Both the position numbers and the translations under genes were made by a program. The notes beneath the pieces were generated by a model that saw nothing but the letters and a program-made list of their open reading frames with translations, had not been told where the DNA came from and did not search any database. Below are positions 19,979-64,000 of a stretch of DNA of 64,000 bases, piece after piece. How positions within the stretch are numbered: the first letter of the stretch is position 1; the number at the start of each line of letters is the position of its first letter. This DNA is from Persephonella marina EX-H1. Lineage in GTDB: Bacteria; Aquificota; Aquificia; Aquificales; Hydrogenothermaceae. The stretch spans positions 376,672 through 440,671 of the forward strand of contig NC_012440.1 in the NCBI RefSeq assembly GCF_000021565.1, in the 5' to 3' direction.

Positions 19979-20004
19979 TGTTTTCCCTCCTTCAGATGTA
20001 ATTA

Positions 20005-20034
20005 AAAAAGGGGAGATAAAACTCTCCCCTTTTA
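20005..20034 (-). terminator. intrinsic terminator or attenuator inside the pilus operon
   Basis: On the minus strand GGGGAGA, a short loop and TCTCCCC are followed by a run of six T, right at the end of the second pilin gene and 27 bases before the chaperone start. It would keep most transcripts to the pilin genes. Confidence 0.75.
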
Positions 20035-20496
20035 CCATGTAAGAGTTAGGTTTACTGTGTCTTCATAAGTTCCTACAGATACATTCTGCCCTGTTCCTAT
20101 TCTTACTGTGAGAGTTAGAATTTCTACAAAATCTGATCCGTCTACATCCGTTCCATTGCTGATTTGGGGAATTACCTGTGCGTTAAGATATTCTGTAGGA
20201 TCACCTACTTTTTCAAGTTTTCCGTCAAAGGATACTGTCCATGTGTATTCAGTTCCTTTTGAACAGTTGAACTCAATTTCTGTTTTTGCTTTTGTTATAC
20301 CGTCAACATAGCCTGTCTCAAATGGATCGTAATTTAGTGTAACGTCATGAGCACCAGTTACAATATTACATACTTTTATAACATTTGCTTGGATTTTAAA
20401 GTCATCATTGGAAATGGGCAAAGGAACTGAATCTGCAAAGACTATGCCAGAAATCCCCAATATCGTAAATCCTGTTATTATTTTTTTCTTTAACAT
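20032..20496 (-). CDS. spore coat U/Csu-type pilin subunit 2
   Basis: 154 residues, signal peptide (about 1-21, ending VFA-DS). Shares with the next pilin the pattern DDFKI-A-V-C, NYDPFETGYVDG, FNCSKGT and a C-terminal NVSVGTYEDTVNLTLTW strand that would be donated to the neighbouring subunit. Paralogous to the 20556-21017 product. Structural pilin of the archaic chaperone-usher class. Confidence 0.85.
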   Translation of the reverse strand: MLKKKIITGFTILGISGIVFADSVPLPISNDDFKIQANVIKVCNIVTGAHDVTLNYDPFETGYVDGITKAKTEIEFNCSKGTEYTWTVSFDGKLEKVGDPTEYLNAQVIPQISNGTDVDGSDFVEILTLTVRIGTGQNVSVGTYEDTVNLTLTW

Positions 20497-20521
20497 AGCT
20501 ATTACCTCTGAGATTTAATAT

Positions 20522-20549
20522 AGCAGGGGTGAGGGGATACACCCCCGCT
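20522..20549 (-). other. hairpin between the two pilin genes
   Basis: A 10-base stem (AGCGGGGGTG with CACCCCTGCT, one G-U pair in RNA) and 8-base loop 7 bases after the first pilin stop, without a following T run. Likely a transcript-processing or stabilising hairpin rather than a strong terminator. Confidence 0.5.
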
Positions 20550-20555
20550 TTATCT

Positions 20556-21017
20556 TTAGTATACGATGTTTACTGTAACTGTATCTTCATATGTCCCCAC
20601 ATTTACGTTTTGCTGAGCAGGTATTGTAATATCAAAGGATAAAATTTCCTCATTTCCTGAACCTATACCGTTAGAGTCTGTGAAAGCATCACCGCTATTT
20701 ATTGAAGAGCCATTAAGTGTTGCACTTAAGCTATAGCTGAGAGTATCACTAATAGCGGGATCTGTACTGGAAAGTACACCGGAAGCTGTCCATGAGATAG
20801 TTCCGCTTGTTCCTTTAACACAGTTGAAAACTATGTTTGTAGAGTCTGTGTAATCACTTGTGATGAAAGGATCATAGTTAACTGAGATGTCTGCTGCATT
20901 CGTGTTGATAACACATTTTTCTGCAACAGTTGCTGTGATTTTAAAGTCATCACTTAAAGCGAAAGCTGCCGTTGATGTAACTGCTCCTGCGAGAGCAAGT
21001 GCTACTAACTTCTTCAT
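20556..21017 (-). CDS. spore coat U/Csu-type pilin subunit 1 (probable major pilin)
   Basis: 153 residues, clear signal peptide (MKKLVALALAGAVTSTAAFA). Mature sequence is rich in Ser, Thr, Asp and Asn with VNYDPFITSDYTD, FNCVKGTSG and a C-terminal NVNVGTYEDTVTVNIVY donor strand. First gene of the operon with an excellent ribosome site (AAAGGAGGTCAGTAAG then ATG), and followed by a hairpin, both consistent with the most abundant subunit. Confidence 0.87.
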   Translation of the reverse strand: MKKLVALALAGAVTSTAAFALSDDFKITATVAEKCVINTNAADISVNYDPFITSDYTDSTNIVFNCVKGTSGTISWTASGVLSSTDPAISDTLSYSLSATLNGSSINSGDAFTDSNGIGSGNEEILSFDITIPAQQNVNVGTYEDTVTVNIVY

Positions 21018-50328: not shown

Positions 50329-51169
50329 TCCCTTCTGTTATAGCTTTTATACCTTCAAGTCCACCAAGTGGTATTGATATATCTCTTCCTGAAGGAATAT
50401 CATAATCTCTCGGGTTTATTCTTATTAATGTTCCAAATATCCTTTCTTTTACCCTTTCAGAGAACATTCTAACGGTAGGAACAGCCTTTCCGGCACCTAT
50501 CTCTATTATGGCTACCTCATAGCCTTTATCATCTACATCAAAAAGCCATCTATCAAGTCTGAACTCCTGTCCTGACGTTCTGTGGGGTATCCATTCCCAG
50601 TCTCCAAACATAAGAATATTAGGTCTTGCAAGTCCACCGCAGTATGGACAGGATGGGAGAGGATCCTTTGCCTCAAAACTTTCCATATCAATATCAATCT
50701 CAACACCGTCAGCAGACCAGATCTGATCACAGCAGGGCTGAACACACTGGAGGTGGTGTATTGATCCGTGAATCTCTACGATCTTTTTTTCGTCAAAACC
50801 TGCCTTCTGAAACTGACCGTCAACATTTGATGTGAAAACGAAATAGCCACCTTTTTTTGACTCACCTAATCTTCTGAGTATGTTAAATCCTTCGTGTGGC
50901 TGGGTGTTCCTGTAAAGGTGGAGTCTGTGTCCATAAAAAGCCCACGCAAGCCTTGGATTTTCTCTAAACCATCTTGGATTGGCAAGCTCTTCAAATCTAA
51001 GACCAAGTTTTTTTGCTATAGGATACGCCCTCCAGAAACCCTCTGTTCCCCGAAAGTCAGGCAGTCCGCTGTCAACACCCATTCCAGCACCGGCTGTTAT
51101 AAGGATCGCATCCGCCTTTTTTATAACTTCCTTTGCCCTATTTATTTCCTCTGATGTTTTGTCTAACAT
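50321..51169 (-). CDS. sirtuin-type NAD-dependent protein deacylase
   Basis: 282 residues. NAD-binding AGAGMGVDSGLPDFRG (26-41), FTSNVDGQF, catalytic histidine in EIHGSIHHLQC, and zinc cysteines (QPCC and CPYCGG). The region after the zinc module, GDWEWIPHRTSGQEFRLDRW, is longer than in CobB. Overlaps the convergent helicase by eight bases. Confidence 0.9.
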   Translation of the reverse strand: MLDKTSEEINRAKEVIKKADAILITAGAGMGVDSGLPDFRGTEGFWRAYPIAKKLGLRFEELANPRWFRENPRLAWAFYGHRLHLYRNTQPHEGFNILRRLGESKKGGYFVFTSNVDGQFQKAGFDEKKIVEIHGSIHHLQCVQPCCDQIWSADGVEIDIDMESFEAKDPLPSCPYCGGLARPNILMFGDWEWIPHRTSGQEFRLDRWLFDVDDKGYEVAIIEIGAGKAVPTVRMFSERVKERIFGTLIRINPRDYDIPSGRDISIPLGGLEGIKAITEGII

Positions 51170-51239
51170 CGGTTTTTACCAAACTATTCTAAATTTTTTG
51201 TAAAGTATATCCTCTTTGTTCACTTGAATTCAACAAATT

Positions 51240-51277
51240 ATGTCAAAAATCCCTTTTCAAATTTCTTGATAAATAAA
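51240..51277 (+). promoter_or_regulatory. repeated upstream element, copy 1
   Basis: TGTCAAA, exactly 14 bases, then TTTCTTGATAAATAAAA, ending about 20 bases before the first gene of the accessory cluster. Matching copies occur at 57822-57859 and, on the other strand, near 62450-62483. Likely a shared promoter or operator. Confidence 0.6.
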
Positions 51278-51299
51278 AGACTATAAAGGAGTTTGAAGG

Positions 51300-51551
51300 A
51301 TGGAAACTGAAAAGCAAGATAGAGAGCTTTTGAAGATACTTATAAACACTTTAGACCAATTAGATTTTCTTGTCAAGATAAACTCCAAATATTTATCTGA
51401 GAATAAAGATTTACAGTTAATATATCTGCAAAAATTGAAAAATATTAAAAGACTTATTGTTTCTCAGAAAACATTAATTTGTCAAAAAAACTTAGAATTA
51501 CTTCTTATAGACATAGAAAGAATTAAATCTACCCTGGAGGTTCCAAGATGA
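51300..51551 (+). CDS. hypothetical 83-residue helical protein
   Basis: First gene of the accessory cluster. Small, charged, leucine-rich helical protein (LLKILINTLDQLDFLVKI) with no signal peptide or membrane segment. Ribosome site AAAGGAG and a conserved upstream element before it. Its stop overlaps the next start by four bases. No family recognised; a cytoplasmic regulator or assembly partner is possible. Confidence 0.7.
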   Translation: METEKQDRELLKILINTLDQLDFLVKINSKYLSENKDLQLIYLQKLKNIKRLIVSQKTLICQKNLELLLIDIERIKSTLEVPR

Positions 51552-51946
51552 AAATAAAAAAACTTTTATTATTGCCAATTATTTTTATTCTTCTTGCAAA
51601 AAATGTTTTTGCCGAGCAATTATATCACCTCGCCAATCAGGATATTCATAATAACTTTATAAAAATCGCTCTTAATTTTGAGAAGGGCAATTTCGCTATC
51701 ATACCAAAACTTATTTCCCGAGAATCTATGGCATGTATTGATAGATTTAAAATTAGCATAGCTGCCTCCAGAAATGACCCTTGTAATTGTATTAGAGAAA
51801 TTAATGAAAACTTAAAAGGAGATAAACTTATTTTCAGTTTGGCGTTTTGCAATTACATCTTATACCTTAGAAAAAATAAGGATATAGACCTTCTCAATAT
51901 AAATACCTTCTTATTTACAAAATATAAAACGGAGGAACTAAAATGA
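51548..51946 (+). CDS. hypothetical exported protein with cysteines
   Basis: 132 residues with a strong signal peptide (MKIKKLLLLPIIFILLAKN, cleavage near VFA). The mature part has four cysteines, including CNC within DPCNCIREI, able to form disulfides. Overlaps both neighbours by four bases. Presumed periplasmic. No recognised family. Confidence 0.75.
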   Translation: MKIKKLLLLPIIFILLAKNVFAEQLYHLANQDIHNNFIKIALNFEKGNFAIIPKLISRESMACIDRFKISIAASRNDPCNCIREINENLKGDKLIFSLAFCNYILYLRKNKDIDLLNINTFLFTKYKTEELK

Positions 51947-52782
51947 GAACAATAAAAAATGTATCTAGCGTAGTTTTTTTACTCTTAGCTATTGTTTTTC
52001 AGATTTTATGTATATCCGCTTACGCGAATGATGCATATTCCAGTGAAGAGGTTTTAATAAGAAAAAAATTACGTGAGAATGGGAAAAAACTACAGGAGAA
52101 TAGCAAAGAAATTAAGTCTTTGTTGAATGAATTGCAGGAAAATCTGAAGAAAATTGAAAAGGAGTGCGGTACACCCGTCAAGAATAAAGCAAAAGAGGAA
52201 TATTGCCGTAAATCAAAAGTATACGAAACTTGGAACTATTACATTAAGCTTTTTGATGCTTTAAAAAAACAAGAAAAAACACTGATGCAAAGATATAACT
52301 TACTAAAAGATTATAGAAGCTCTGGAGTTACAGATCATCAACAAGAGTTTAAAGCTTTTCTCAGAGAATCTAAAGATACAGGAAGGAAAATTGTTGCTGT
52401 ATATACATCAATGAAGGATTTTCTTCCAGAAAGAGAAGCAAAATTATTGGAGAAAAAAATCAGAAACTTAAAGAAATACTTAAAGAGGCAAAAAAAGATA
52501 GAAGAATTTAGTAATCAGTTAGGTGATTCTGTGGATATTGAAATAATACGTTCACATACAAGGGATGCTATATATGAAATAAACCAACAACGAGAGGCAA
52601 TCAGAATAGTACTTTTAGGTTTTTACAATACATACTCTGGTTTGAAAAATAACTTAAGTAATATTTCTCTTGAGGAAATATTTGAAGTTGCAAAACCACT
52701 GTTAAAAAAGCAAAAAGAAGAAATAGAAATTGGAGGAGAAGAAAATGAAGAGATCACAGAGTATTTCTTTGAAGACCTTTAA
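51943..52782 (+). CDS. exported coiled-coil protein
   Basis: 279 residues, signal peptide (about 1-28), then a long run of charged heptads (LRENGKKLQENSKEIKSLLN and onwards to about 230) predicted as coiled coil, and a very acidic end (GGEENEEITEYFFEDL). Periplasmic, possibly spanning or scaffolding between membranes. Overlaps the ExbB-like gene start by 38 bases. Confidence 0.75.
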   Translation: MRTIKNVSSVVFLLLAIVFQILCISAYANDAYSSEEVLIRKKLRENGKKLQENSKEIKSLLNELQENLKKIEKECGTPVKNKAKEEYCRKSKVYETWNYYIKLFDALKKQEKTLMQRYNLLKDYRSSGVTDHQQEFKAFLRESKDTGRKIVAVYTSMKDFLPEREAKLLEKKIRNLKKYLKRQKKIEEFSNQLGDSVDIEIIRSHTRDAIYEINQQREAIRIVLLGFYNTYSGLKNNLSNISLEEIFEVAKPLLKKQKEEIEIGGEENEEITEYFFEDL

Positions 52783-53203
52783 GTATTCGTACTTATTCTC
52801 TTTGTTAATACTGATTGTTGGGTTTATGATGTTTAGAGAAAATATAATACTAACAACAAAGTGGTTATTAAATAAAGGTGGGATTATAACTATATTCATT
52901 ATTATAATTTCCGTATTATCCTTAGGTTCTTTAATATGGGACATAATAGACAAGGGAAAACCAAGTGAAAAAGTTCTATTTGTCCTCTCTTTTTTAGAAG
53001 TTCACGCAACTACATTGGGTTTGCTTGGTAGCATTATAGCTTTAGCCTTTAAGAGCCCCAGCATATTCGAAAATGACCGTATAAATAATGCTGCTCTAAT
53101 GAACGTTCTGTCAGAAGCATGGCTTTCAACTATCGCGGGATTAGTAGTTACACTGATCGTAAGCCTGATTCTAAGCTATGAAAAATCTAAAGGAGGTGAT
53201 TAG
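52745..53203 (+). CDS. ExbB/TolQ/MotA-like membrane protein
   Basis: About 152 residues, four hydrophobic segments (near 11-28, 40-60, 85-108 and 120-145). The last two carry the stator pattern: HATTLGLLGSIIALAF and ALMNVLSEAWLSTIAGLVVT, comparable to the housekeeping ExbB at 3709 (GLFGTVLGIIKAF and EALVATAMGLFVAI). With the next gene it should form a proton- or sodium-driven channel. ATG at 52745 preferred because GGAGGAGAAG precedes it. Directly followed, after a stop, by the ExbD-like gene. Confidence 0.75.
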   Translation: MKRSQSISLKTFKYSYLFSLLILIVGFMMFRENIILTTKWLLNKGGIITIFIIIISVLSLGSLIWDIIDKGKPSEKVLFVLSFLEVHATTLGLLGSIIALAFKSPSIFENDRINNAALMNVLSEAWLSTIAGLVVTLIVSLILSYEKSKGGD

Positions 53204-53602
53204 ATGAAATTCCGTCAGGGTGGGGGAAAGGTATCTGTAGCTTTTATAGATGTTTTCTTTAACCTGATGTTTTTGTTCTTGATACTTGCAATTATCCATA
53301 ATTCATCAAACGAAGCAACAGAACTTGATGCAAAAGATAGAGAAAAAAACACAGGAAATATGCAAATACTTGATGATTCTTATTATATAGGATTGAAAAA
53401 TAATAAATGGGTTGTATCTAAAGATAACCGCGAAGTTTTGATTTCTGACTTTGAAGAAATAATCAAATGGATAAAACAAAATAAGCCAACTTCAGTTGTC
53501 ATATTAGCAGACTCTAAGAAAAGAATTAGAATGAACCAGGTTTTTAAGATTATAGAAGCAATACAGAATTCTGGAGGAAACATTTACTATGCATTCCAAT
53601 AG
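53204..53602 (+). CDS. ExbD/TolR-like membrane protein
   Basis: 132 residues. One transmembrane helix with an aspartate at its N-terminal side (D16 in VSVAFIDVFFNLMFLFLIL), the place of the channel aspartate in ExbD. The C-terminal half keeps the ExbD/TolR fold rhythm (ISDFEEIIKWIKQN, SVVILADSKKRIRMNQVFK). The start abuts the ExbB-like stop. Partner of that gene. No OmpA-type peptidoglycan domain, unlike MotB or ZorB. Confidence 0.75.
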   Translation: MKFRQGGGKVSVAFIDVFFNLMFLFLILAIIHNSSNEATELDAKDREKNTGNMQILDDSYYIGLKNNKWVVSKDNREVLISDFEEIIKWIKQNKPTSVVILADSKKRIRMNQVFKIIEAIQNSGGNIYYAFQ

Positions 53603-54257
53603 AAAAAAAATAATATTTTTTAGCATGGTTGTAATGATATTATTAATGTTTAAACATATTAATCAGAAACATCCTATTTCTCTGAACAAAAGCGATATTC
53701 AAAAAAAACAACATCCTTCATATAGAAATCTAATTAAAGTAGACTCTCACCAAATACATAGCTATAAAAAAACCAAAGAAGCAAGGAATAACTACAAACA
53801 TAATACGCTACCCGTAAAAATAAAGCTCCACTTGTCAAAAGATGTAATTTTTCTTTTATTAAACAAAAATTCTAAGGTTTTCGTCTTTACTGGTAGAGGT
53901 AAAAATTCTTCCATTTTAGGCTACCTCGACTCAGATCTAAGAATTAAAGAACTGAGTAACATACCTGATACTATAATTGGCTATCAAATAAAGCTATTAT
54001 CTGCTGAAAGAAGGTTGATTTATGAGAAAAACTATATATGTAACAAGTTAAATTGTAAGTTGTTTTTACAACTTGATCCAAGATTAAAAATAATTATACA
54101 AAACTTAGTAAAAAAAGAAATCAAAAATAGGAATATATCTAAAATAGTATCTGTAAATGTTTCCCTCTTTGCACAAAAAGGGTATCTTTATCTAACAATT
54201 GATAGCATTCAATTAGAAGGAAAGAAAATACCCATAAAGAAAGTCTATCCAATATAG
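53589..54257 (+). CDS. single-pass membrane protein in the TonB/TolA position
   Basis: 222 residues: N-terminal anchor (about 7-22), a polar, basic linker (to about 75), and a C-terminal domain (about 80-222) with alternating strands (DVIFLLLNKNSKVFVFTGRG). Its place after an ExbB/ExbD pair is that of TonB or TolA, but no TonB motif is seen. Overlaps the ExbD-like end by 14 bases. Periplasmic domain function unknown. Confidence 0.7.
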   Translation: MHSNRKKIIFFSMVVMILLMFKHINQKHPISLNKSDIQKKQHPSYRNLIKVDSHQIHSYKKTKEARNNYKHNTLPVKIKLHLSKDVIFLLLNKNSKVFVFTGRGKNSSILGYLDSDLRIKELSNIPDTIIGYQIKLLSAERRLIYEKNYICNKLNCKLFLQLDPRLKIIIQNLVKKEIKNRNISKIVSVNVSLFAQKGYLYLTIDSIQLEGKKIPIKKVYPI

Positions 54258-54266
54258 GAGGGAGCA

Positions 54267-54794
54267 ATGATATTGAGGATTTTTCTTATGGTACTATTAA
54301 ACCTATCAATGGTACCAAATCTTTTCGCAGAAACTATTGATAAGAATGAGTGTATATTCAAATACTCAAGGACTTATTCCTTAGAAGAACTTTTTAAAGA
54401 AATGTATAAACTTTCAAAAAAATTTGATTTAGACCCGGATTTGATTTATTCCATCATTTATGTAGAAAGTAAATGGGACCCATGTGCAGTTTCCCATAAA
54501 GGTGCTATTGGACTTATGCAAATAATGCCTACAACGGCTTTGATATTCGATAAAAACCTTAAAACTGAGGAATTATTTGACCCAATAATAAATATGGAAA
54601 TAGGAATTCTTTATTTTAAAGCACTTTTATCATATTACGAACAGTTTCATCCAAAAGCAATTGCTATTAAAAAGGCCTTAATTGCCTATAATGCAGGTCC
54701 TTACGCAAAGAGTATTCCTTCAGAGAGTAAAAATTACGTCAAAAAAGTCTTTAAAATTTTCTATAAATTAAAAAGTAAGGAGGCAAAAAGATGA
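54267..54794 (+). CDS. lytic transglycosylase (SLT domain)
   Basis: 175 residues with a signal peptide (about 1-18). Catalytic glutamate E67 in IIYVESKWDP, then SHKGAIGLMQIMPTTA and ALIAYNAGP, the three SLT motifs. Cleaves peptidoglycan glycan strands. Compact enzymes of this kind commonly open the wall for transenvelope machines. It lies immediately downstream of the ExbB/ExbD-like set. Confidence 0.9.
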   Translation: MILRIFLMVLLNLSMVPNLFAETIDKNECIFKYSRTYSLEELFKEMYKLSKKFDLDPDLIYSIIYVESKWDPCAVSHKGAIGLMQIMPTTALIFDKNLKTEELFDPIINMEIGILYFKALLSYYEQFHPKAIAIKKALIAYNAGPYAKSIPSESKNYVKKVFKIFYKLKSKEAKR

Positions 54795-55204
54795 AAAAGT
54801 CAGGATTTATCATAATGACATTTATAGCCTTGTTTTTATTCTCCTGCACCCCAAAAGGAGTAAATACTACATTACAGAAAACCAACTATAAAAAAACACC
54901 CTTATTAAGAATTTCCAGTAAAAAAGCCCAAATATTAGAGGCAATTGAATTAAATCTCAAACAGGGCAAGTTTGATGAAGCAGTTAAACAATGTGAGGAC
55001 ATTGTTTATGGCGATTATGAAAACATGGGAGTGAAGTGTATAGCCTCAACCTATTACTCCTTAGCTTATTTACTACAGGGAGATATAGAAACCTTTCTTT
55101 CTGTTGGAAATTATATGGAAGAGTTTTGTAGTGGCTTCAAAACCATACCAAAACAAACAGAGGTACTCATCAACTTATATAACAATTGGAATAGAAAATC
55201 TTAA
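54791..55204 (+). CDS. lipoprotein with TPR-like helices
   Basis: 137 residues. Lipobox LFLFSC (cysteine near 19). The rest is helical, with TPR-like rhythm (AIELNLKQGKFDEAVKQCED, then ASTYYSLAYLLQGDIETFL). Start overlaps the transglycosylase stop by four bases. Likely an outer-membrane component or pilotin of the apparatus; that role is inferred. Confidence 0.75.
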   Translation: MKKSGFIIMTFIALFLFSCTPKGVNTTLQKTNYKKTPLLRISSKKAQILEAIELNLKQGKFDEAVKQCEDIVYGDYENMGVKCIASTYYSLAYLLQGDIETFLSVGNYMEEFCSGFKTIPKQTEVLINLYNNWNRKS

Positions 55205-55215
55205 GGAGGATAGCT

Positions 55216-55584
55216 ATGCAGATATTAACAGGAATTTTAATACTTGTCATTCTGCTTATAGCTGGTTCGTTCTTTTTGCAGGGAAAAAAAGAAAATTTAC
55301 TCAATCTACCGACTCAAACAGACGTAAAAACAAGCAAACAACACACAAAAGATGTTAAAACCCAACAAAATAGTTATTCTCAGAAAGAAGAGTTAAAAGA
55401 TGAGTTGGAAGATAACCAGGAATACACTTCTAAAGATAACTCTGAAAAACACGAAACTATTGATGAAAAGATTGAACATTACTCTTCTTTTTATGATAAT
55501 GAAATTTACAAAGATAAAGTTGAAGAGTTAGATAAAAATTTAGAGGACTTGGCTGATAAAACTGCTGAAAGAATATTTAATTGA
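55216..55584 (+). CDS. membrane-anchored acidic protein
   Basis: 122 residues: an N-terminal hydrophobic helix (3-22) then a hydrophilic, glutamate- and lysine-rich segment likely to be disordered or coiled coil, ending KVEELDKNLEDLADKTAERI. Ribosome site AAGGAGG. No family recognised. Last of the tightly packed short genes before the 732-residue gene. Confidence 0.65.
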   Translation: MQILTGILILVILLIAGSFFLQGKKENLLNLPTQTDVKTSKQHTKDVKTQQNSYSQKEELKDELEDNQEYTSKDNSEKHETIDEKIEHYSSFYDNEIYKDKVEELDKNLEDLADKTAERIFN

Positions 55585-55620
55585 TATATTGATATACTAT
55601 GGTCAGGGAGGTTTATAAAT

Positions 55621-57819
55621 ATGGGGAACATATATACAACACATACAGATGAACTTAACAAAATAAATCCTTCCTTGAATGCGAAACCCCTAAATGAATT
55701 TAATATAGATGAACTTACTAGTGAGGATATTGTAATATTCTTTGATAGTATTTACAGTGACTTTATTTCAAACAGGATTATTAACAAGGAAGTTCAAAAA
55801 ATAGAAGAGCCCGAAGATATAGTAACCGTAGAACTACCATTTATGATTAACTTTGGAGATGAAAATAATCCGATGTTTTTCTTCAGCACAGAAAATTTAG
55901 AGGATTTAAAGGAAGAAAGACTTTTTTTACTAAATGATGTTTTTCATATAATTTTAGACTTTGTATTATACGATTTATTAGAAGAAATAGAAAGAATAAA
56001 AATGTCCCAGGAACTCAGTGAACTTGCTGAAGCCGAGCTTACATTAAGGTCTGCAATTCAAAAAAAAGACATTATCCGTATTATAGATAGACATCATTTC
56101 GGAACAATATTTTTAGCAACTTTCAATATAGATATGGGTAATAAAATTTACATGTTCCTTTTCAGGGGAAAAATTTCATGGAACAGAAAGGACAACAATG
56201 GTTTCAAACCCTTCATAATACGATACGAGGAAACAATAATTGAAAAAATAAAAGAAGCTATAAATACAGGAAAATTAAACTTAAAAGAGCAAAATATTAA
56301 TGATGCAAAACCTGATGGAACAACCATTGATTTCAATGTGGAAGATACAAAGCTAAGTATTTATGAAGTGAAAGACCTTTCCAAAAAAACTGCAATTATA
56401 CTGCTTGATATTAACAATAATGTAAAGAAAATTATTTTTCCTAAAGAACTGAAAATTAATAACGAGGTTTTATATGGTTTTGAGTTAGATGTTGAGGATT
56501 TTAATAACGAAAATAAATTTTTCGTTGAATTGAATAAAAAAGACAAAAACATCTTATTAGATATATATAAAAACCTAAAAAACAAGTACATTGAAATAAA
56601 AAATGATGACGGAAATACAATTAAAGAAATAAACTTAGGTAGTATGTTTTTAGAAAACTTACAGAAATCTTTGCTTTATGAGTTTAATAAAGAGCATAGG
56701 CTTTTTAATAAGCTAATCAAGCTGAATGGAAAAATAAATTACTCCTTTTATGAAAAAATTATGGAAATTATAAAAAACTCTTTAACAAAAAATTATATTA
56801 ATCAAAATCCTGAGCTTTTAAGCAAATTGTTTGATATTTTATTACAAAGAGGAAATAAACTTCCACATATCGAAATTATATTTACAACACGAGATATTCT
56901 GAAGAAGTACAATAGAAATGAAGAGAATATACCAGGCTTTTTGAAAAGATTAGGTAATTACTATGTAATAAAAATAATACAGAAGTTATTTGAAGAAAAA
57001 AAGAAAACAAATAAAGGAACGAATAAAAAAAGTCAACCATATGACGCAAATCGTCATTATAATATTTCTGAAAATACTGATGAAGAATATGAAGATATTG
57101 ACGAAGACAAGAAATATCTCTCGCGAGAGGCCATTAACACATTAATAAAGCAGCCAACTCTTATTGATAATAAGAGAGGGCGTAAAGAAAACAAATTAAA
57201 CAAACTTTTATTGCTTACATTTTATCTCGCCGATGGATTAATATATTATCGTAATAAACATGCACCCAAATGTAAACTTAGTGCAGTTTACGGATATATA
57301 ATGGAACATAACTCCGAAGGAAAAAAATATAGATATAATTCGGCAAAAGAGATTAAGGGAACTTATAACTGGGACGCAGGTATTTTCTCCATCATTGAGT
57401 TTGTGGGTAAAAATGACAATGAATACTGTGTATATAGGGAACTCATTGATTTTCTAAACAAATCTTATTCGAATGAAGAAAAAGAAATTTCGGGTATTAT
57501 TTTCAAAGCAGCTGAAACTTTAGATAAGTTAACAAAAGAAGTGGTTGCTGAACTGGTTAGTAAAAAGAAAAGAGAGGATTGTACAGATGAATTAAAAAAC
57601 AGAATCCTAAAAGAACTCTATCCACAAATCTTAATCTTCCTCAATGATAATCTAAATCTCTATATACTAAGTAAAGAATGCCATAATCATGAAATAAAAG
57701 AATACTTTGAAAATCCATTTGTACCAGCAACAAAAATAAATGGACTATATAACCGATATAAACAAGGAATAAAAAGATTGTTTGAAGAAGCTCGAAATGT
57801 AGCCATATCAAACAAGTAA
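55621..57819 (+). CDS. large cytoplasmic protein of unknown family
   Basis: 732 residues, no signal or membrane helix. Very rich in Lys, Glu, Asn and Ile. Visible parts: an acidic N-terminal region, a middle domain (about 250-350), a low-complexity linker near 460-500 (TNKGTNKKSQ and EEYEDIDEDKK), and a C-terminal region starting YLSREAINTLIKQPTL. I see no nuclease, ATPase or protease motif. It may be the cytoplasmic scaffold or sensor of the cluster. Ribosome site GGGAGG; 36 bases after the preceding gene. Confidence 0.7.
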   Translation: MGNIYTTHTDELNKINPSLNAKPLNEFNIDELTSEDIVIFFDSIYSDFISNRIINKEVQKIEEPEDIVTVELPFMINFGDENNPMFFFSTENLEDLKEERLFLLNDVFHIILDFVLYDLLEEIERIKMSQELSELAEAELTLRSAIQKKDIIRIIDRHHFGTIFLATFNIDMGNKIYMFLFRGKISWNRKDNNGFKPFIIRYEETIIEKIKEAINTGKLNLKEQNINDAKPDGTTIDFNVEDTKLSIYEVKDLSKKTAIILLDINNNVKKIIFPKELKINNEVLYGFELDVEDFNNENKFFVELNKKDKNILLDIYKNLKNKYIEIKNDDGNTIKEINLGSMFLENLQKSLLYEFNKEHRLFNKLIKLNGKINYSFYEKIMEIIKNSLTKNYINQNPELLSKLFDILLQRGNKLPHIEIIFTTRDILKKYNRNEENIPGFLKRLGNYYVIKIIQKLFEEKKKTNKGTNKKSQPYDANRHYNISENTDEEYEDIDEDKKYLSREAINTLIKQPTLIDNKRGRKENKLNKLLLLTFYLADGLIYYRNKHAPKCKLSAVYGYIMEHNSEGKKYRYNSAKEIKGTYNWDAGIFSIIEFVGKNDNEYCVYRELIDFLNKSYSNEEKEISGIIFKAAETLDKLTKEVVAELVSKKKREDCTDELKNRILKELYPQILIFLNDNLNLYILSKECHNHEIKEYFENPFVPATKINGLYNRYKQGIKRLFEEARNVAISNK

Positions 57820-57821
57820 TT

Positions 57822-57859
57822 TGTCAAATTTTACCTCCAGAATTTCTTAATAAGTAAAA
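57822..57859 (+). promoter_or_regulatory. repeated upstream element, copy 2
   Basis: TGTCAAA, 14 bases, TTTCTTAATAAGTAAAA, 20 bases before the ATG of the 143-residue gene. Same spacing and core as at 51240-51277. Confidence 0.6.
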
Positions 57860-57878
57860 CAATCTGGAGGTAATTAAG

Positions 57879-58310
57879 ATGAATACTAATCCCGAATTTG
57901 AAAGAAATATGAATAATTTATTCAATGAAATTGAAAAAGATTTTAAACTCAGGGAAATTGCAAAAAAAATAGCTCATATTAAACCGCAAAAAGAGTTTGA
58001 TGAAATTTCCAATGGTCATGTCTATATGATTTCCCAAGAGGAATTTGAAAAACTTGATAATCTCATTTATGAAATAATGGCAATGAGTACTTCTTTACCT
58101 GACCATTTAAACAATATCATTAAACTCTGGGAACTTAACAATGTAGATGTAAAAGCCTTGATTTATCTATCTTTTTTTAGTGGGAAATATATGGGAATAA
58201 CTATAGGAAAGGATATAGGGAAATTAGAATCTATGAATCTATTAAAGACGGAATTTCCTAATTTCTTAAAAGAAGTTTTATATAAAAACTCAAAGGATTA
58301 TAGGAAGTAA
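57879..58310 (+). CDS. hypothetical 143-residue protein
   Basis: Soluble, helical, acidic-basic mixed protein without signal peptide. Segment ELNNVDVKALIYLSFFSGKYMGITIG is moderately hydrophobic. Strong ribosome site (CTGGAGG) and a copy of the cluster's upstream element. No family recognised. Same AT-rich codon use as the genes before it. Confidence 0.7.
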   Translation: MNTNPEFERNMNNLFNEIEKDFKLREIAKKIAHIKPQKEFDEISNGHVYMISQEEFEKLDNLIYEIMAMSTSLPDHLNNIIKLWELNNVDVKALIYLSFFSGKYMGITIGKDIGKLESMNLLKTEFPNFLKEVLYKNSKDYRK

Positions 58311-58609
58311 TAAACTTTTGCTTGATACAGGTAAAAGCTTTAAAAGGGAATAATATCCTAATAAGGTTTAGTTGGACTACAGAAGCAATATAAACGGCGG
58401 TAGGGTAGAGGTTTCATGATATGTTAACTGTTAGTAAAGCACTGAATTTGAGATTTATAGAATAAATAATTAGGTAAAATTGAGGTTTTAGGCATAGCTC
58501 CGATAATTATTTAATTATAAGGAGATATTATTCAAGTTATAAATTGAATAAGTTAAAGTTTTCCAGATGGTTGTAAAAGGTTTAAGATTTTAGGACGAGG
58601 TGATTTAAA
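58311..58609. other. 299-base non-coding gap with inverted repeat
   Basis: No supported gene. A 9-base exact inverted repeat (AAATAATTA at 58464-58472 and TAATTATTT at 58504-58512) with a GG/CC continuation surrounds a 31-base interior. It lies about 100 bases before the CHAT gene and could be a leader structure or regulator site. No tRNA or known riboswitch recognised. Confidence 0.35.
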
Positions 58610-61423
58610 ATGAACCCAAAAATTGAAGCCTTAATCAACCAGCTTGAAGAATTAAAAAACAAATCAGATTCAGAAGCATGTAAAAATCTATTTGGTACTG
58701 TAATTGAGGTATTAAAAAATGAACCCACTAATGATGAAATATTAGAGGAATTGTTATCTTATTTTTGGAAAGAAGGAGATAAAATCAATCAAATTTGTCC
58801 AGATTATTATACCTCTTTCCTAAAAATTTTAGGAAATCTCTCTGAATTATTTTCAGACGATAAATTAAAATATTTTCACCTTGGCGTTTCATGGTATAGA
58901 TCAGGAAAAATCCACAAAGAAAAAGGAAATCTTGATGATGCTATGAACTGTTTTAAAAATGCTATCAGATACTATGAAAATACTGTCAATATTGACTCTA
59001 ACCTTGCAAATGCATGGTACAACCTTGGCCTTTCATGGGCTAAATCAGGAAAAATTCATAAAGAAAAAGGAAATCTTGATGATGCTATGAACTGTTTTAA
59101 AAATGCTATCAGATACTATGAAAATACTGTCAAAATTAACCCTAACTTTGCAGATGCATGGTACAACCTTGGCCTTTCATGGGCTAGATCAGGAGAAATT
59201 CATAAAGAAAAAGGAAATCTTGATGATGCTATGAACTGTTTTAAAAATGCTATCAGATACTGTAAAAATGCTGTCAAAATTAACCCTAACCTTGCAAATG
59301 CATGGAGTAACCTTGGCTTTTCATGGGCTAAATCAGGAGAGATTCGCAAAGAAAAAGGAAATCTTGATGATGCTATGAACTGTTTTAAAAATGCTATCAG
59401 ATACTGTGAAAATGCTGTCAAAATTAACCCTAACCTTGCAAATGCATGGTACAACCTTGGCGTTTCATGGCAAAAATTAGGAGAAATTCACAAAGAAAAA
59501 GGAAATATATTTGATAACTCTATCAGATGTCTTGAAAATGCTGTCAAAATTAACCCTAACTTTGCAGATGCATGGTACAACCTTGGCGTTTCATGGGCTA
59601 GATCAGGAGAAATTCATAAAGAAAAAGGAAATCTTGATGATGCTATGAACTGTTTTAAAAATGCTATCAGATACTGTGAAAATGCTGTCAATATTGACCC
59701 TAACCTCGCAAATGCATGGAGCGACCTTGGTATTTTATGGAGAATGTTGATAAAAATTATTCCAATAAAGCCATTATTAAATACAGCAATTTCTTATGAG
59801 CTAACTATTTTATTTAATTTAAAAAGGATTATTGATGGTCTTAATTCTAAACTTTTAATTGAAAGTTATATTAACAAATTTGTTTTTTCTTCGTTGGATA
59901 GATTACTTTTTTATTCTTCACTTCACAAAAATAGTCTGACAGAAAAAAAGGAAATATTAGAAGCTGTGGAACAGTTTAAAGGTTATTTCTTCTTCAAGGA
60001 GTTCGTGGGAAAACAGCAGATTACGGACAATACTAATTTAAACAAATTACTAAAACTGCATGAAAAATTTAATGTTAACAAAACAATAGAAAATGCGCTA
60101 CATAGCCTTAAAAACGCAATGCAAAAAGATAATTCCATTGATACTAACCTTTTAAGATATATAATTCTTGAGTCAGAAGCTGAAAATTCCACAAATAATA
60201 AAGAAAAAACCAGAGAGATTGAACAAATATTTTATGACACTCTTAAAAATATATCTGTTAACTTTAATTTTGATAATCTCAATTTAAAAACTAATGAAAC
60301 TATTGTGTACCTATTGTTTAGAGAAATTGCTATTTATAGAGATATCAAAAGAGTACTTACCATAATATTAGTTTATAAAAATGGTGGCGAAATAAAAGTA
60401 AATACAAAAAATTATGATATAGGAGGAACTAATATTGACGATTATGCAGAGATATCCTATTTACTAAACGCAAAACTTATCCTTCCATTAGCATCAAATA
60501 AAAACTTAGATGATAATCTATTAAAAGATATAAAAAATAAAATAGAAAGAAGTCTAATAAGAGATGAAACAAAAAATTATATTTTAGATTTTATTGAAAG
60601 TAATTCATTAAAAGAATTTTTACTGATTCGTAGAAAGTTATTTGCTGATGTTATAGATATACTCAAGAGACATGTACTCCCTTTAATTCCAAAAGACAAA
60701 ACCAGAGTTTATATATCCCCTATAGGTGAACTAAATAGACTTCCTGTACATATTGCCCTGATTGACGAAAAAGAAGTTTCTTATCTGCCAACTGCAAAAC
60801 TGTTAGAAAAAAGAATACAGCTAACATTTTCTAAGAAAGCTTTAATTGTATTTACAGAAGAAAAACAGCTAAAAGATGAAGCTGTAGAAGTGGAAAAAAT
60901 CTTGAAAGAAGATGGATATTTTGTAGAAATGCTTAATCTGAGCCAATATTCCAACAGGAAAGAAATTCTCAAAAAGAAATTAGAAGAAAAAGATTGGAAT
61001 ATCGTCCATTTTGTTCTGCATGGAAAGTACGATGAAGACACAAATATGTCTTATCTTATACTTTCTCCTACAGAAAATTTAACCCGTGAAGATATCTACC
61101 TTATGAATTTAAATATAAATTTAGTTTCCCTTAGCTCCTGCGAAACATATACAAACAAGAAAGTTGAAGGATTTGATGAAATAAACGCTATTGAGAAGGC
61201 ATTTCTGGTCAATAATGTACAGAGAGTTATATCTACATATTATGCTGTATTTTCTAAAGGGGCTAAAGAGTTCAGCACTTCATATTTTAAACAGTTAATA
61301 AAAGAAAATCACAACTTTGAAAAAGCGTTCAGGAATACAGTCCTTGAGCTTAAACAAAAAGGAGAAGATGAATATATGTTCTTCAGATATACGTCTAAAG
61401 GACAAGATACTATAGTTATCTAA
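58610..61423 (+). CDS. TPR-CHAT protein (caspase-like protease)
   Basis: 937 residues. N-terminal helical part, then six TPR-like units of 48 or 42 residues (about 100-375; GKIHKEKGNLDDAMNCFKNA, with NAWYNLGLSW), a helical middle region, and a C-terminal CHAT domain (about 690-937). The CHAT dyad is intact: H804 in VHFVLHGKY and C844 in LVSLSSCET. CHAT proteases are known effectors in bacterial conflict systems (type III-E CRISPR, gasdermin loci). The repeats probably bind a partner. Ribosome site GAGGTGA. Trigger and substrate unknown. Confidence 0.9.
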   Translation: MNPKIEALINQLEELKNKSDSEACKNLFGTVIEVLKNEPTNDEILEELLSYFWKEGDKINQICPDYYTSFLKILGNLSELFSDDKLKYFHLGVSWYRSGKIHKEKGNLDDAMNCFKNAIRYYENTVNIDSNLANAWYNLGLSWAKSGKIHKEKGNLDDAMNCFKNAIRYYENTVKINPNFADAWYNLGLSWARSGEIHKEKGNLDDAMNCFKNAIRYCKNAVKINPNLANAWSNLGFSWAKSGEIRKEKGNLDDAMNCFKNAIRYCENAVKINPNLANAWYNLGVSWQKLGEIHKEKGNIFDNSIRCLENAVKINPNFADAWYNLGVSWARSGEIHKEKGNLDDAMNCFKNAIRYCENAVNIDPNLANAWSDLGILWRMLIKIIPIKPLLNTAISYELTILFNLKRIIDGLNSKLLIESYINKFVFSSLDRLLFYSSLHKNSLTEKKEILEAVEQFKGYFFFKEFVGKQQITDNTNLNKLLKLHEKFNVNKTIENALHSLKNAMQKDNSIDTNLLRYIILESEAENSTNNKEKTREIEQIFYDTLKNISVNFNFDNLNLKTNETIVYLLFREIAIYRDIKRVLTIILVYKNGGEIKVNTKNYDIGGTNIDDYAEISYLLNAKLILPLASNKNLDDNLLKDIKNKIERSLIRDETKNYILDFIESNSLKEFLLIRRKLFADVIDILKRHVLPLIPKDKTRVYISPIGELNRLPVHIALIDEKEVSYLPTAKLLEKRIQLTFSKKALIVFTEEKQLKDEAVEVEKILKEDGYFVEMLNLSQYSNRKEILKKKLEEKDWNIVHFVLHGKYDEDTNMSYLILSPTENLTREDIYLMNLNINLVSLSSCETYTNKKVEGFDEINAIEKAFLVNNVQRVISTYYAVFSKGAKEFSTSYFKQLIKENHNFEKAFRNTVLELKQKGEDEYMFFRYTSKGQDTIVI
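58880..59735 (+). repeat. six near-identical tandem repeats within the CHAT gene
   Basis: Units recur with GGAAAT at 58925, 59069, 59213, 59357, 59501 and 59627: four steps of 144 bases and one of 126. A core of about 45 bases (starting AATCTTGATGATGCTATG) is identical in five of the six. The near-identity at DNA level points to recent expansion or homogenisation. Confidence 0.9.
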
Positions 61424-61442
61424 GAACAAGAGAAATTTGGAA

Positions 61443-61465
61443 GGGGGAAATTTTAAGTTTCCCCC
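61443..61465. terminator. terminator hairpin between convergent genes
   Basis: GGGGGAAA and TTTCCCCC with a 7-base loop, lying between the CHAT stop and the convergent zinc-knuckle gene. The T run is weak (ATTATAATT). It may serve either direction. Confidence 0.65.
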
Positions 61466-61492
61466 ATTATAATTGGAGTTAAACTCTTAGAA

Positions 61493-61777
61493 TCAACCTG
61501 TTCTAACAGCTCTACGAATTTTGTATTTCCCAAAGGCAGGAACTGCCCCGACACCACCACAAACCGAACATTTTCCCCAACCTGCTGAACCACCTCCTCC
61601 ACAGTAACCACATTTAACTATTGGAGTTTCTGGTTCTTCACATACCAAAGTAATCACCCCGACTCCTCCGCAAACCGAACATTTTCCCCAACCTGCTGAA
61701 CCACCTCCTCTACAGTAACCACATTTAACTATTGTAACTTTTCCTTGTTTTTCAATAACAACAACTTTTAGATTCAT
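61493..61777 (-). CDS. small protein with two zinc-knuckle repeats
   Basis: About 94 residues from the ATG at 61777 (AGGAGG seven bases before). Two copies of KCGYCGGGGSAGWGKCSVCG-like sequence, each with two CxxC pairs and Gly-rich spacing like the DnaJ cysteine-rich module, probably binding one zinc per copy or per pair. No J-domain. Overlaps, in its ribosome site, the end of the preceding small gene. A chaperone-like or nucleic-acid-binding role is possible. Confidence 0.7.
   Translation of the reverse strand: MNLKVVVIEKQGKVTIVKCGYCRGGGSAGWGKCSVCGGVGVITLVCEEPETPIVKCGYCGGGGSAGWGKCSVCGGVGAVPAFGKYKIRRAVRTG
61550..61734 (-). repeat. direct repeat encoding the two zinc knuckles
   Basis: Two segments of about 74 bases (61550-61623 and 61661-61734), offset by 111 bases, differ at only a few positions. 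It shows duplication within the gene. Confidence 0.85.
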
Positions 61778-61782
61778 TTTTC

Positions 61783-61983
61783 TCACCTCCTAATCATAAA
61801 ATGCCATGATAAAATATCTTCAATTGCTATACTTTCACCAACGTAACTTTTTGTACTTTCTTTACACCGGTTTTTTCGCAAATTATCTTTCATCCTCAAA
61901 CTGAGTTGAGATTTCCATTCCAGTATTCCTTCCAGTAAAGCTAAACCTGTTTGCTTCTTTGCAGGTTTACTTTCCTTCATCAT
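61783..61983 (-). CDS. hypothetical small basic protein
   Basis: About 66 residues from the ATG at 61983 (GGAGG seven bases before). Basic (KPAKKQ, RMKDNLRKNRCKES). The ribosome site of the next gene is inside its last codons (TAGGAGGTGA), so the two are coupled. No family recognised. Confidence 0.6.
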   Translation of the reverse strand: MMKESKPAKKQTGLALLEGILEWKSQLSLRMKDNLRKNRCKESTKSYVGESIAIEDILSWHFMIRR

Positions 61984-62000
61984 CTTTAGCACCTCCAAAG

Positions 62001-62423
62001 TTATTTAGTTAAAAACAAGTCTCTGTTTCTTACTACATGGAAAACAAACGGAAGAATTTCTTCTGTATAAGGGGTGAGTTTTAGGTTTGATAAATCTTCA
62101 ATAGAGAACCATTGAGCATTCTTGTTTTTTATCTGTATTTTATCCTTCTGAATCTCACATATAAAAAGATTTAATATATAGTGCCTATTTAATTTAGTGT
62201 CCTTAAAACAGAAACTACAGAATTGATTTACTTTGTTAATATTGTTTATTCCTGTTTCCTCATTTATCTCCCTAATTAAACATTCTTCGAGAGATTCATA
62301 TTCTCTTTTTTTTCCTCCGGGTAACTCTAAATATCCGTTGTATCTGTTCGAATCTTCCCTCCTAACTAGTACAATATCGCTATTGTTTAAAATTATTCCT
62401 TTACATATATTTACTAATTCCAT
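62001..62423 (-). CDS. Nudix hydrolase (MutT-like)
   Basis: 140 residues. Full Nudix box: GGKKREYESLEECLIREI followed by NEETGI, matching G-x5-E-x7-REU-x-EE-x-G-U. Cleaves nucleoside diphosphate-linked substrates; specificity is not readable, with mutagenic dNTP cleanup a possibility. Ribosome site CAGGAGG. An upstream motif copy like those in the accessory cluster precedes it. Confidence 0.9.
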   Translation of the reverse strand: MELVNICKGIILNNSDIVLVRREDSNRYNGYLELPGGKKREYESLEECLIREINEETGINNINKVNQFCSFCFKDTKLNRHYILNLFICEIQKDKIQIKNKNAQWFSIEDLSNLKLTPYTEEILPFVFHVVRNRDLFLTK

Positions 62424-62445
62424 TATCGTATCCTCCTGAATTATC

Positions 62446-62483
62446 TTTCAATAAATAAGAAAAATCTCTCGGAAAATTTGACT
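62446..62483 (-). promoter_or_regulatory. repeated upstream element, copy 3
   Basis: On the minus strand AGTCAAA (62477-62483), 14 bases, TTTCTT (62457-62462) and ATTTATTGAAAG, before the Nudix start. The core and spacing match copies 1 and 2 although the tail differs. Confidence 0.5.
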
Positions 62484-62901
62484 TAATTACCTTGTTTATA
62501 ATGATTTTTTGAGATAATATGACGAAAATTACATAACATAGCTTCAAAGTTTTTCCTAAATATGAATATAAAATTCTGACCAAAAAGGATTTTGAGAATA
62601 GAACTGAAAATTTGTAGAATAAAAAAAATTAAAAATAAGATACTTGTTTAAAACTCTCAAAGAAACAAATTACAATACCGGCTAATTGCAAGAAAAAAAG
62701 TTAGGGACAGATGTTATAGAAATGCATGACGAACACGGAAAAATTACGATAGAATCTTTGAGAAGTTTTTATGGAGTATGCATAAATACGCAATAAAGAT
62801 CAAATGAATAGAAGAAATTAACTGGACAGAAAAGGAATGTGTTGAAAAAAATAATATAATTATTCATCCCCCTGGTCAGATCAATCAGGTACAGGTTAAA
62901 C
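62484..62901. other. 418-base stretch without a recognised gene
   Basis: AT-rich. Short open pieces on the plus strand, for instance one reading KLGTDVIEMHDEHGKITIES (around 62695-62760), could be relics of a lost gene, but each is broken by stops and none has a ribosome site. No tRNA or repeat seen. Confidence 0.4.
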
Positions 62902-63522
62902 TCAGAATGTTAGACCAAACTCAACGTTTACTACTGTTCCACCAAAATCGAAAGTTTCTTCGTACTTAGTAACATTACCGTATGAATCAATTTCATAAAA
63001 CTGAAAATCCTGATTGTTAGTAAAAAACTTGATAAATGTACCTATAAAAGCTTTTGGTGATATAGAGTATCTCATTCCTGCTTTTAAAACACCACCTGTT
63101 CCTCTACCGGCATCTTCATAGGTGTATTCATAGTATCCATCTGTAGCTGTTAAAGAGAGTTTATTCATATAAATGCCCAGTCCAATCCCAGCATAAAGCT
63201 CCAGTTTGTTGTTCTGATGGGAGAATATTCCGATAACTTCTATTCCTCTGGTCTGTATTTCACCTGATCCTGTTAGTCCAGTATCGTAAAGTTCAGCCTG
63301 TGTAGAATGCCCTGATAGGTCAAAGTGGAGATAAAAAGACTGTGAGACCCTTTTTGAAAGAGATACTGTAATGTCTGTTCCTTCATCCCAGCCGTCAAGA
63401 TCTTCAGAATTTGGATAAAAAATGCCTGCACTTAGAGAAACTCGGCTCTCGTAGGCATAGGGTTGAGAAAAGATTAGAAAAAACATAACAGGAACAAGAA
63501 AAAAGTTTTTGAATTTAAACAT
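62902..63522 (-). CDS. outer-membrane beta-barrel protein
   Basis: 206 residues: signal peptide (about 1-23, ending PYAYES), then alternating amphipathic strands (GIEVIGIFSHQN, LELYAGIGLGIYMNKL, GGVLKAGMRYSIS) ending in the C-terminal phenylalanine (VVNVEFGLTF) that targets barrels to the Bam machine. An eight-strand, OmpA/OmpW-like barrel is likely. Function unknown. Confidence 0.8.
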   Translation of the reverse strand: MFKFKNFFLVPVMFFLIFSQPYAYESRVSLSAGIFYPNSEDLDGWDEGTDITVSLSKRVSQSFYLHFDLSGHSTQAELYDTGLTGSGEIQTRGIEVIGIFSHQNNKLELYAGIGLGIYMNKLSLTATDGYYEYTYEDAGRGTGGVLKAGMRYSISPKAFIGTFIKFFTNNQDFQFYEIDSYGNVTKYEETFDFGGTVVNVEFGLTF

Positions 63523-63610
63523 TAAAAGAACCTCCAGCGTTTTAATAATTAAGAACGCTGAAGATAGAAGATACCTGACAGATCCTGATATTTTTTAAAG
63601 ATTTGATGAA

Positions 63611-63635
63611 GAAAAGCTGGCTTTAAAAGCCAGCT
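63611..63635 (-). terminator. terminator of the second barrel gene
   Basis: AGCTGGC and GCCAGCT with a 7-base loop; on the minus strand TTTTC follows. It lies 12 bases after the stop of the gene at the window edge. Confidence 0.6.
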
Positions 63636-63646
63636 AGATAAATTTT

Positions 63647-64000
63647 TTAAAAATGTATTCCAAGCTCTAATCCGTATGAAGTTCCTCCAAAGTTTGCTTT
63701 ATAGTATCTCCCATTTATATAATCATAAACTTCCTGATCGTTTGTGTTGTATTTTACAAATAAACCAAAAAACCCTCCCTTACTGTCTGATCTTACGCCA
63801 AACTTGGCAACATATCCTAAGGCTGAACCCGTGCTTGAGTTAGATATTGATAAAAATTTAACTTCTTCATCTAAGCTGTTCACATAATATCCAACTCCCC
63901 CAGCTGCGTAGACATATACACTACTTCCAAAAGTAACTGTAAAAAGAGCTTCAAGAGCTGTAGTATCAATTTTTCCATAATAGGAGGAAGAGTCATATTC
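63647..64000 (-). CDS. outer-membrane beta-barrel protein, partial at window edge
   Basis: The frame stays open from the stop at 63647 to base 64000, so the gene's start lies outside the window. Visible strands are ALEALFTVTFGSSVYVYAAGG, LGYVAKFGVRSD, GGFFGLFVKYNTNDQE and the end YGLELGIHF, a C-terminal phenylalanine. Similar in layout to the neighbouring barrel (NDQEVY and NNQDFQFY in equivalent places), so a diverged duplicate is likely. Confidence 0.75.
   Translation of the reverse strand, partial: EYDSSSYYGKIDTTALEALFTVTFGSSVYVYAAGGVGYYVNSLDEEVKFLSISNSSTGSALGYVAKFGVRSDSKGGFFGLFVKYNTNDQEVYDYINGRYYKANFGGTSYGLELGIHF

What the first reader, a model, noticed from the sequence alone, without database searches (positions are those of the whole stretch)
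51300..58310. Candidate new transenvelope system: second ExbB/ExbD-like motor with lytic transglycosylase, lipoprotein and unknown proteins
Seen: eleven same-strand genes, many overlapping by a few bases, encode an ExbB-like and an ExbD-like channel pair, a single-pass protein in the TonB/TolA slot, an SLT transglycosylase, a lipoprotein, two exported proteins (one coiled coil), a membrane-anchored acidic protein and two cytoplasmic unknowns. Known: ExbB/ExbD, TolQ/TolR and MotA/MotB pairs use ion flow to do work across the envelope, and the Zorya defence systems use such a motor. Inference: an ion-driven machine crossing the wall, different from the housekeeping exbB-exbD-tonB set at 3709-5457 and from Zorya, as it has no OmpA domain and no long ZorA tail.
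Basis: partly seen in the sequence, partly recalled or inferred. Interest (0 to 1): 0.85.

Follow-up and report, generated by a model that had tools for sequence, protein, structure and literature searches.

The report
Mobile ion-motor operon with caspase-like protease
A heat-loving bacterium carries, on a 13-kb block of inserted DNA, a set of genes for an ion-driven cell-envelope motor with its own wall-cutting enzyme and a neighbouring caspase-like protease; a distant relative carries the same core beside a Tn7-type jumping element, which suggests a new motor-based, possibly anti-phage, system.

Summary
A 12-gene same-strand run (51300-61423) encodes an ExbB/ExbD-type channel pair, an SLT transglycosylase, a lipoprotein, two exported proteins, a membrane-anchored periplasmic protein and cytoplasmic unknowns.

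The genes travel together. One other Aquificota genome of 136 searched, in a different family (Aquificaceae MAG JALWVU010000030.1), has the same six-gene order at about 16-43% identity, plus a TPR-CHAT gene 106 bp upstream. It lies beside tnsA-tnsB-tnsC-tniQ and one Tn7-like end. In the window, the set sits in a 13-kb low-GC insertion between two genes that are 10 bp apart in a relative.

Known systems fail membership tests: Zorya (no OmpA domain, no ZorA tail), Ton/Tol (no TonB C-domain, no transmembrane His motif, no TolB/Pal).

Best reading: a mobile trans-envelope motor system, probably a defence or envelope-stress device that signals to the CHAT protease. Assembly and mobility are well supported; the defence role is inference (about 0.4). 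Only two members were found.

The parts
51170..64000 (.). Inserted island (continues to about 64246, beyond the window): lies between a sirtuin gene (50321-51169) and a creatininase-family gene (64247-64984)
   Evidence: The two flanking genes are 10 bp apart in G080 and near-adjacent in G092 and G082; GC 0.27-0.33 in the operon against 0.37-0.39 in the flanks
51300..51551 (+). w1: 83-aa cytoplasmic unknown
   Evidence: ORF, SD-like site; no Pfam match; no counterpart seen in G023
51548..51946 (+). w2: exported 132-aa protein with four Cys
   Evidence: N-terminal hydrophobic signal; positional counterpart in G023 with the same four-Cys pattern, not significant by score alone
51943..52782 (+). 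w3: exported helical/coiled-coil 279-aa protein
   Evidence: Ortholog in G023, 9e-13, z 15.9, two Cys conserved; found in only these two genomes at significant level
52745..53203 (+). w4: ExbB/MotA-family channel subunit
   Evidence: Pfam PF01618 3.7e-5; ortholog in G023, 4e-15; LGLxGS and STxAGL motifs shared
53204..53602 (+). w5: ExbD/TolR-family subunit with pore Asp16
   Evidence: Pfam PF02472 1.4e-7; ortholog in G023, 1e-19; Asp16 aligns with the Asp of the housekeeping ExbD
53589..54257 (+). w6: single-pass protein with periplasmic alpha/beta C-terminal part
   Evidence: One TM segment; positional ortholog in G023, z 3.7, profile unique to these two genomes; model pLDDT 66
54267..54794 (+). 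w7: exported SLT lytic transglycosylase
   Evidence: Pfam PF01464 8.7e-25; ortholog in G023, 6e-34, with ES, GLMQ, AYNAG motifs and two Cys conserved
54791..55204 (+). w8: lipoprotein (lipobox LFSC)
   Evidence: Sequence; no counterpart found in the G023 locus
55216..55584 (+). w9: membrane-anchored acidic 122-aa protein
   Evidence: N-terminal TM segment, 26 acidic residues
55621..57819 (+). w10: 732-aa cytoplasmic unknown
   Evidence: No family, PDB, plasmid or phage match; weak similarity to a 578-aa G023 protein
57879..58310 (+). w11: 143-aa cytoplasmic unknown
   Evidence: ORF; weak similarity to a 95-aa G023 protein
58610..61423 (+). w12: TPR-CHAT protease, His804 and Cys844
   Evidence: Pfam TPR and CHAT 1.6e-17; catalytic pair; TPR-CHAT homolog next to the G023 motor operon; TPR units of 144 nt at 92% identity
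61443..61465 (+). Terminator-like hairpin GGGGGAAATTTTAAGTTTCCCCC
   Evidence: Best + strand site in the region

Best explanation
A horizontally acquired operon for an envelope-spanning device powered by ion flow through an ExbB-ExbD-type channel (5:2 by homology). Shown: the channel pair with the conserved pore Asp and TM motifs; exported partners with conserved cysteines; a dedicated SLT transglycosylase with intact motifs; an adjacent TPR-CHAT protease with intact catalytic pair; inheritance of the core as a unit; an island or Tn7-like setting. Inferred: w2, w3 and w6 form a periplasmic arm on the motor, the transglycosylase opens or engages the wall so that the arm can cross or test it, and the lipoprotein contacts the outer membrane. 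Envelope breach, most simply phage entry, engages the motor; w9-w11 pass the change of state to the TPR repeats; the CHAT domain then cleaves cellular targets to stop the infection or the cell. It would work like Zorya in logic, with different parts and a protease effector.
For: Same gene order and TPR-CHAT in two families. w3, ExbD and w6 profiles match strongly only in these two genomes of 136. CHAT is rare in the phylum and elsewhere not beside motors where readable. Island with empty site in relatives, low GC. Tn7-like genes and end in G023; Tn7-like cargo is enriched in defence genes and includes Zorya (PMC8649781). Catalytic residues kept. Recently expanded TPR array.
Against: No experiment and no known defence gene beside the operon. 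CHAT is downstream in one locus and upstream in the other, with a 299-bp gap in the window, so it may be separate island cargo. w8 and w9 have no counterpart in G023, and w10/w11 counterparts are weak. Only two members.
Confidence: 0.4

Rival explanations
1. A trans-envelope transport or assembly machine (export, uptake, or building of a surface structure) energised by the ExbBD-type motor, with the transglycosylase making the passage through the wall. The CHAT gene is separate island cargo.
For: Dedicated transglycosylases accompany secretion and pilus systems; w7 also resembles VirB1 and IagB models weakly. Exported proteins, a lipoprotein and a motor fit a conduit.
Against: No outer-membrane channel, secretion ATPase, pilin or receptor in the operon. 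CHAT is at both loci.
Confidence: 0.3
2. A divergent Ton or Tol system: w6 is the force transducer that acts on an outer-membrane partner.
For: ExbD matches ExbD/TolR profiles best; the order ExbB-ExbD-single-pass protein resembles exbB-exbD-tonB.
Against: w6 has no TonB/TolA domain by Pfam and no significant fold match, and lacks the TM His motif. No TolB, Pal or receptor in the operon. The host already has exbB-exbD-tonB at 3709-5457.
Confidence: 0.1
3. A surface motility or adhesion motor acquired as niche cargo.
For: Related motors drive gliding (AglRS and others, PMC12505986); G081 carries a chemotaxis operon at the same site.
Against: No adhesin, gliding or motility protein in the operon.
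Confidence: 0.08

Closest known systems
Zorya anti-phage systems (ZorAB plus effectors)
   Same: MotA/ExbB-family motor in a mobile setting with cytoplasmic partner proteins; ZorA2 is the best, very weak PADLOC match of w4
   Different: No ZorA tail, no OmpA-type peptidoglycan-binding domain on w5, no ZorC/D/E match; a separate transglycosylase and a TPR-CHAT protease instead
Ton and Tol-Pal systems
   Same: Same motor superfamily; ExbD/TolR-type periplasmic domain; single-pass gene next to exbD
   Different: No TonB/TolA C-domain found, no TM His motif, no TolB or Pal
TolQR-like motors with vWA transducers and a TPR gene (PMC12204202)
   Same: Uncharacterised 5:2 motor set next to a TPR gene
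   Different: No vWA domain match here; SLT and CHAT instead
TPR-CHAT proteases of type III-E CRISPR (Craspase)
   Same: TPR repeats followed by a CHAT caspase-like domain with His/Cys pair
   Different: No CRISPR effector match in the operon; associated with a membrane motor
Tn7-like transposon cargo
   Same: G023 locus lies beside tnsA, tnsB, tnsC and tniQ and one end
   Different: No tns genes or ends found in the window island; only one end seen in G023

Membership tests
MotA/TolQ/ExbB - ExbD/TolR motor superfamily | ExbB-type and ExbD-type subunits encoded as a pair | tested here: met
   PF01618 and PF02472 above cut-off in the window; orthologous pair in G023, though there neither reaches its cut-off
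MotA/TolQ/ExbB - ExbD/TolR motor superfamily | Pore Asp in the ExbD TM helix and Thr/Ser-bearing motifs in ExbB TM helices | tested here: met
   Asp16 and the LGLxGS / STxAGL motifs align with the housekeeping pair
MotA/TolQ/ExbB - ExbD/TolR motor superfamily | 5:2 complex that conducts ions | not testable with these tools
   No complex prediction was available; the single-chain ExbB model was poor
Zorya | ZorB periplasmic OmpA-type peptidoglycan-binding domain | tested here: not met
   w5 is 132 aa with an ExbD match only
Zorya | Long cytoplasmic ZorA tail | tested here: not met
   w4 is about 152 aa and ends about 10 residues after its last TM helix; tail needed for defence (PMC11890865)
Zorya | ZorC/D or ZorE partners | tested here: not met
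   No PADLOC match in w2-w11 other than the weak ZorA2 and unrelated chance hits
Ton / Tol-Pal | TonB/TolA C-terminal domain on the single-pass protein | tested here: not met
   No Pfam match, no significant fold match; the model is only of moderate confidence, so a weak negative
Ton / Tol-Pal | SHLS-type TM motif with His | tested here: not met
   No His inside the predicted TM segment core of w6 or its G023 counterpart with Ser four before it; the housekeeping TonB has SxxxH (motif from PMC12204202)
Ton / Tol-Pal | TolB and Pal, or a TonB-dependent receptor, in the operon | tested here: not met
   No match in any operon protein tested
SLT lytic transglycosylase family | SLT domain with catalytic Glu and GLMQ / AYNAG motifs | tested here: met
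TPR-CHAT proteases | CHAT domain with His and Cys after TPR repeats | tested here: met
Tn7-like transposon cargo | Locus between two transposon ends with tns genes | tested here: inconclusive
   In G023 tnsA, tnsB, tnsC and tniQ and one end were found; no second end in the sequence scanned, which starts at the contig end. Not seen in the window
Anti-phage defence system | Protection from phage | not testable with these tools
   Needs a phage challenge experiment

The most novel reading that the evidence does not exclude
A new class of motor-based phage immunity: an ExbBD-type ion motor with its own wall-cutting enzyme senses envelope breach from the periplasm and triggers a TPR-CHAT caspase-like protease in the cytoplasm.
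Probability: 0.3. Interest if true: 0.87.

Novelty: new variant of a known kind. Interest (0 to 1): 0.62.

Why it matters
Few kinds of PMF-driven ExbB/MotA-family motor systems are characterised and, to my knowledge, only Zorya is known to serve defence. A mobile motor operon with its own transglycosylase and a caspase-like protease would be a second, independent way to couple the ion gradient to an intracellular response, and would link trans-envelope sensing to bacterial caspase-like proteases. The gene set also escapes standard annotation: in the second member neither motor subunit reaches its Pfam cut-off.

Tried and rejected
Relatives outside Aquificota: a pattern-plus-tblastn scan of GTDB genomes with the ExbD alignment found only G023. 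IMG/VR scans with ExbB, ExbD and w3 found nothing, nor did tblastn of w10, ExbB or ExbD against plasmids or of w10 against phages. These scans are insensitive to distant relatives, so rarity is not proven. Weak PDC-M18B and ZorA2 matches: shared superfamily only. Other CHAT genes in the phylum: none beside a motor where neighbours could be read; some contigs were too short to tell. CHAT relatives on plasmids are cyanobacterial and covered at most 56% of the query; neighbourhoods not examined. Fold search with w6: no significant match. ExbB model too poor to use. Duplicated flank genes as island borders: none in the window. No Rfam match in 51000-63000. No literature found on this gene set.

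Full report
WHAT IS THERE. The window is G000:C2:376672-440671 of a 1.98-Mb genome in two contigs; the contig sizes fit Persephonella marina EX-H1, from memory. From 51300 to 61423 lie twelve + strand genes. The twelfth, 299 bp on, is a 937-aa TPR-CHAT protein. The strongest + strand terminator-like hairpin follows it at 61443-61465; within the genes there is one weak site at 57041. A single transcript is plausible but not shown.

THE PROTEINS. w4 is an ExbB/MotA-family protein with four hydrophobic helices and no tail; w5 is an ExbD/TolR-family protein whose Asp16 aligns with the Asp of the housekeeping ExbD. w7 is an exported SLT transglycosylase with its motifs intact. w2 and w3 carry signal peptides, w6 is single-pass, w8 has a lipobox, w9 has an N-terminal anchor and an acidic tail (read from sequence and hydropathy, no dedicated predictor). 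w10 and w11 match nothing in the libraries searched (w11 was not run against Pfam or PDB). w12 keeps the CHAT His804 and Cys844, and its TPR array is built of 144-nt units at 92% identity, a recent expansion.

THE GENES TRAVEL TOGETHER. Of 136 Aquificota genomes, one other, G023, has a clear ExbB match. It is Aquificaceae MAG contig JALWVU010000030.1, from another family of the same order. Its locus reads CHAT - 128-aa exported - 255-aa coiled coil - ExbB - ExbD - 213-aa single-pass - SLT. Pairwise support: w3 9e-13, ExbB 4e-15, ExbD 1e-19, SLT 6e-34, CHAT 8e-17, in searches against only the 13 proteins of that locus. w6 is weaker (z 3.7, 1 of 300 shuffles) but full length and in place. w2 is supported only by position and a shared four-Cys pattern. 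w10 and w11 have weak possible counterparts. Profile searches with w3, ExbD and w6 match strongly in the same two genomes only; other matches are marginal, though each profile was built from these two sequences. CHAT is rare in the phylum, six matches outside these two loci, and none lay beside a motor where neighbours could be read, so its presence at both motor loci is unlikely to be chance, with the caveat that islands gather such genes. The two CHAT proteins are each other's best match among those compared.

MOBILITY. The operon has 27-33% GC against 37-39% around it. The genes on either side, a sirtuin and a creatininase-family gene, are 10 bp apart in G080 and near-adjacent in G092 and G082; G081 carries a chemotaxis operon in the same place. 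So a 13-kb block differs here, and insertion is the simple reading. In G023 the operon is followed by tniQ, tnsC, tnsB and tnsA and by a likely transposon end with a TGT terminus and three TnsB-like repeats. The second end was not found. Tn7-like cargo is enriched in defence genes and includes Zorya (PMC8649781).

WHAT IT IS NOT. Zorya needs the ZorA tail and the ZorB peptidoglycan-binding domain (PMC11890865); both are absent here. Ton and Tol have a TonB/TolA C-domain and the SHLS transmembrane motif (PMC12204202); neither was found. The w6 model is of moderate confidence (mean pLDDT 66.5) and rests on two sequences, so the fold result is a weak negative.

HOW IT PROBABLY WORKS. Shown: parts, order, conservation, intact active-site motifs, island setting. 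Inferred: a motor with a periplasmic arm and a wall-modifying enzyme senses envelope breach and signals through the cytoplasmic proteins to the CHAT protease. TPR-CHAT is a protease of type III-E CRISPR (PMC9729208, abstract). The main rival is a transport or assembly machine with CHAT as unrelated cargo.

LIMITS. Only two members; searches outside Aquificota were insensitive; no complex prediction; no experiment.

Noticed in passing
L005:3692-5290 (G023): A class II aminoacyl-tRNA synthetase gene (D/K/N type, LysRS-like) lies between the w10-like gene and the CHAT gene, apparently inside the Tn7-like element.
   Followed up: partly
L006:10462-15348 (G023): A 1628-aa GyrA-like ORF seems to hold two inteins (two Cys-start, HN-end insertions), read from the sequence only.
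   Followed up: no
L059 (G081), reverse complement 2058-2894 and 4415-4639: An intact sirtuin gene is followed by a second, partial copy of its N-terminal end beside a chemotaxis operon; G068 and G069 also hold sirtuin fragments. The sirtuin 5' end may be an integration hot spot.
   Followed up: partly
window 58878-59730: TPR array of the CHAT gene made of 144-nt units at 92% identity, so copy number probably varies.
   Followed up: partly
window 61493-61786 (- strand): Small Cys-rich protein with a duplicated KCGYCxGGGSAGWGKCSVCGGVG motif, no Pfam match.
   Followed up: no
window 16077-21017 (- strand): Genes that look like a chaperone-usher pilus set (usher of 827 aa, chaperone, small secreted subunits).
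   Followed up: no
L063 (Nitrosophilus labii plasmid pHRV44): The best-ranked plasmid relative of the G023 TnsB (40% identity) sits in a Tn7-like module near an N-6 DNA methylase gene.
   Followed up: partly
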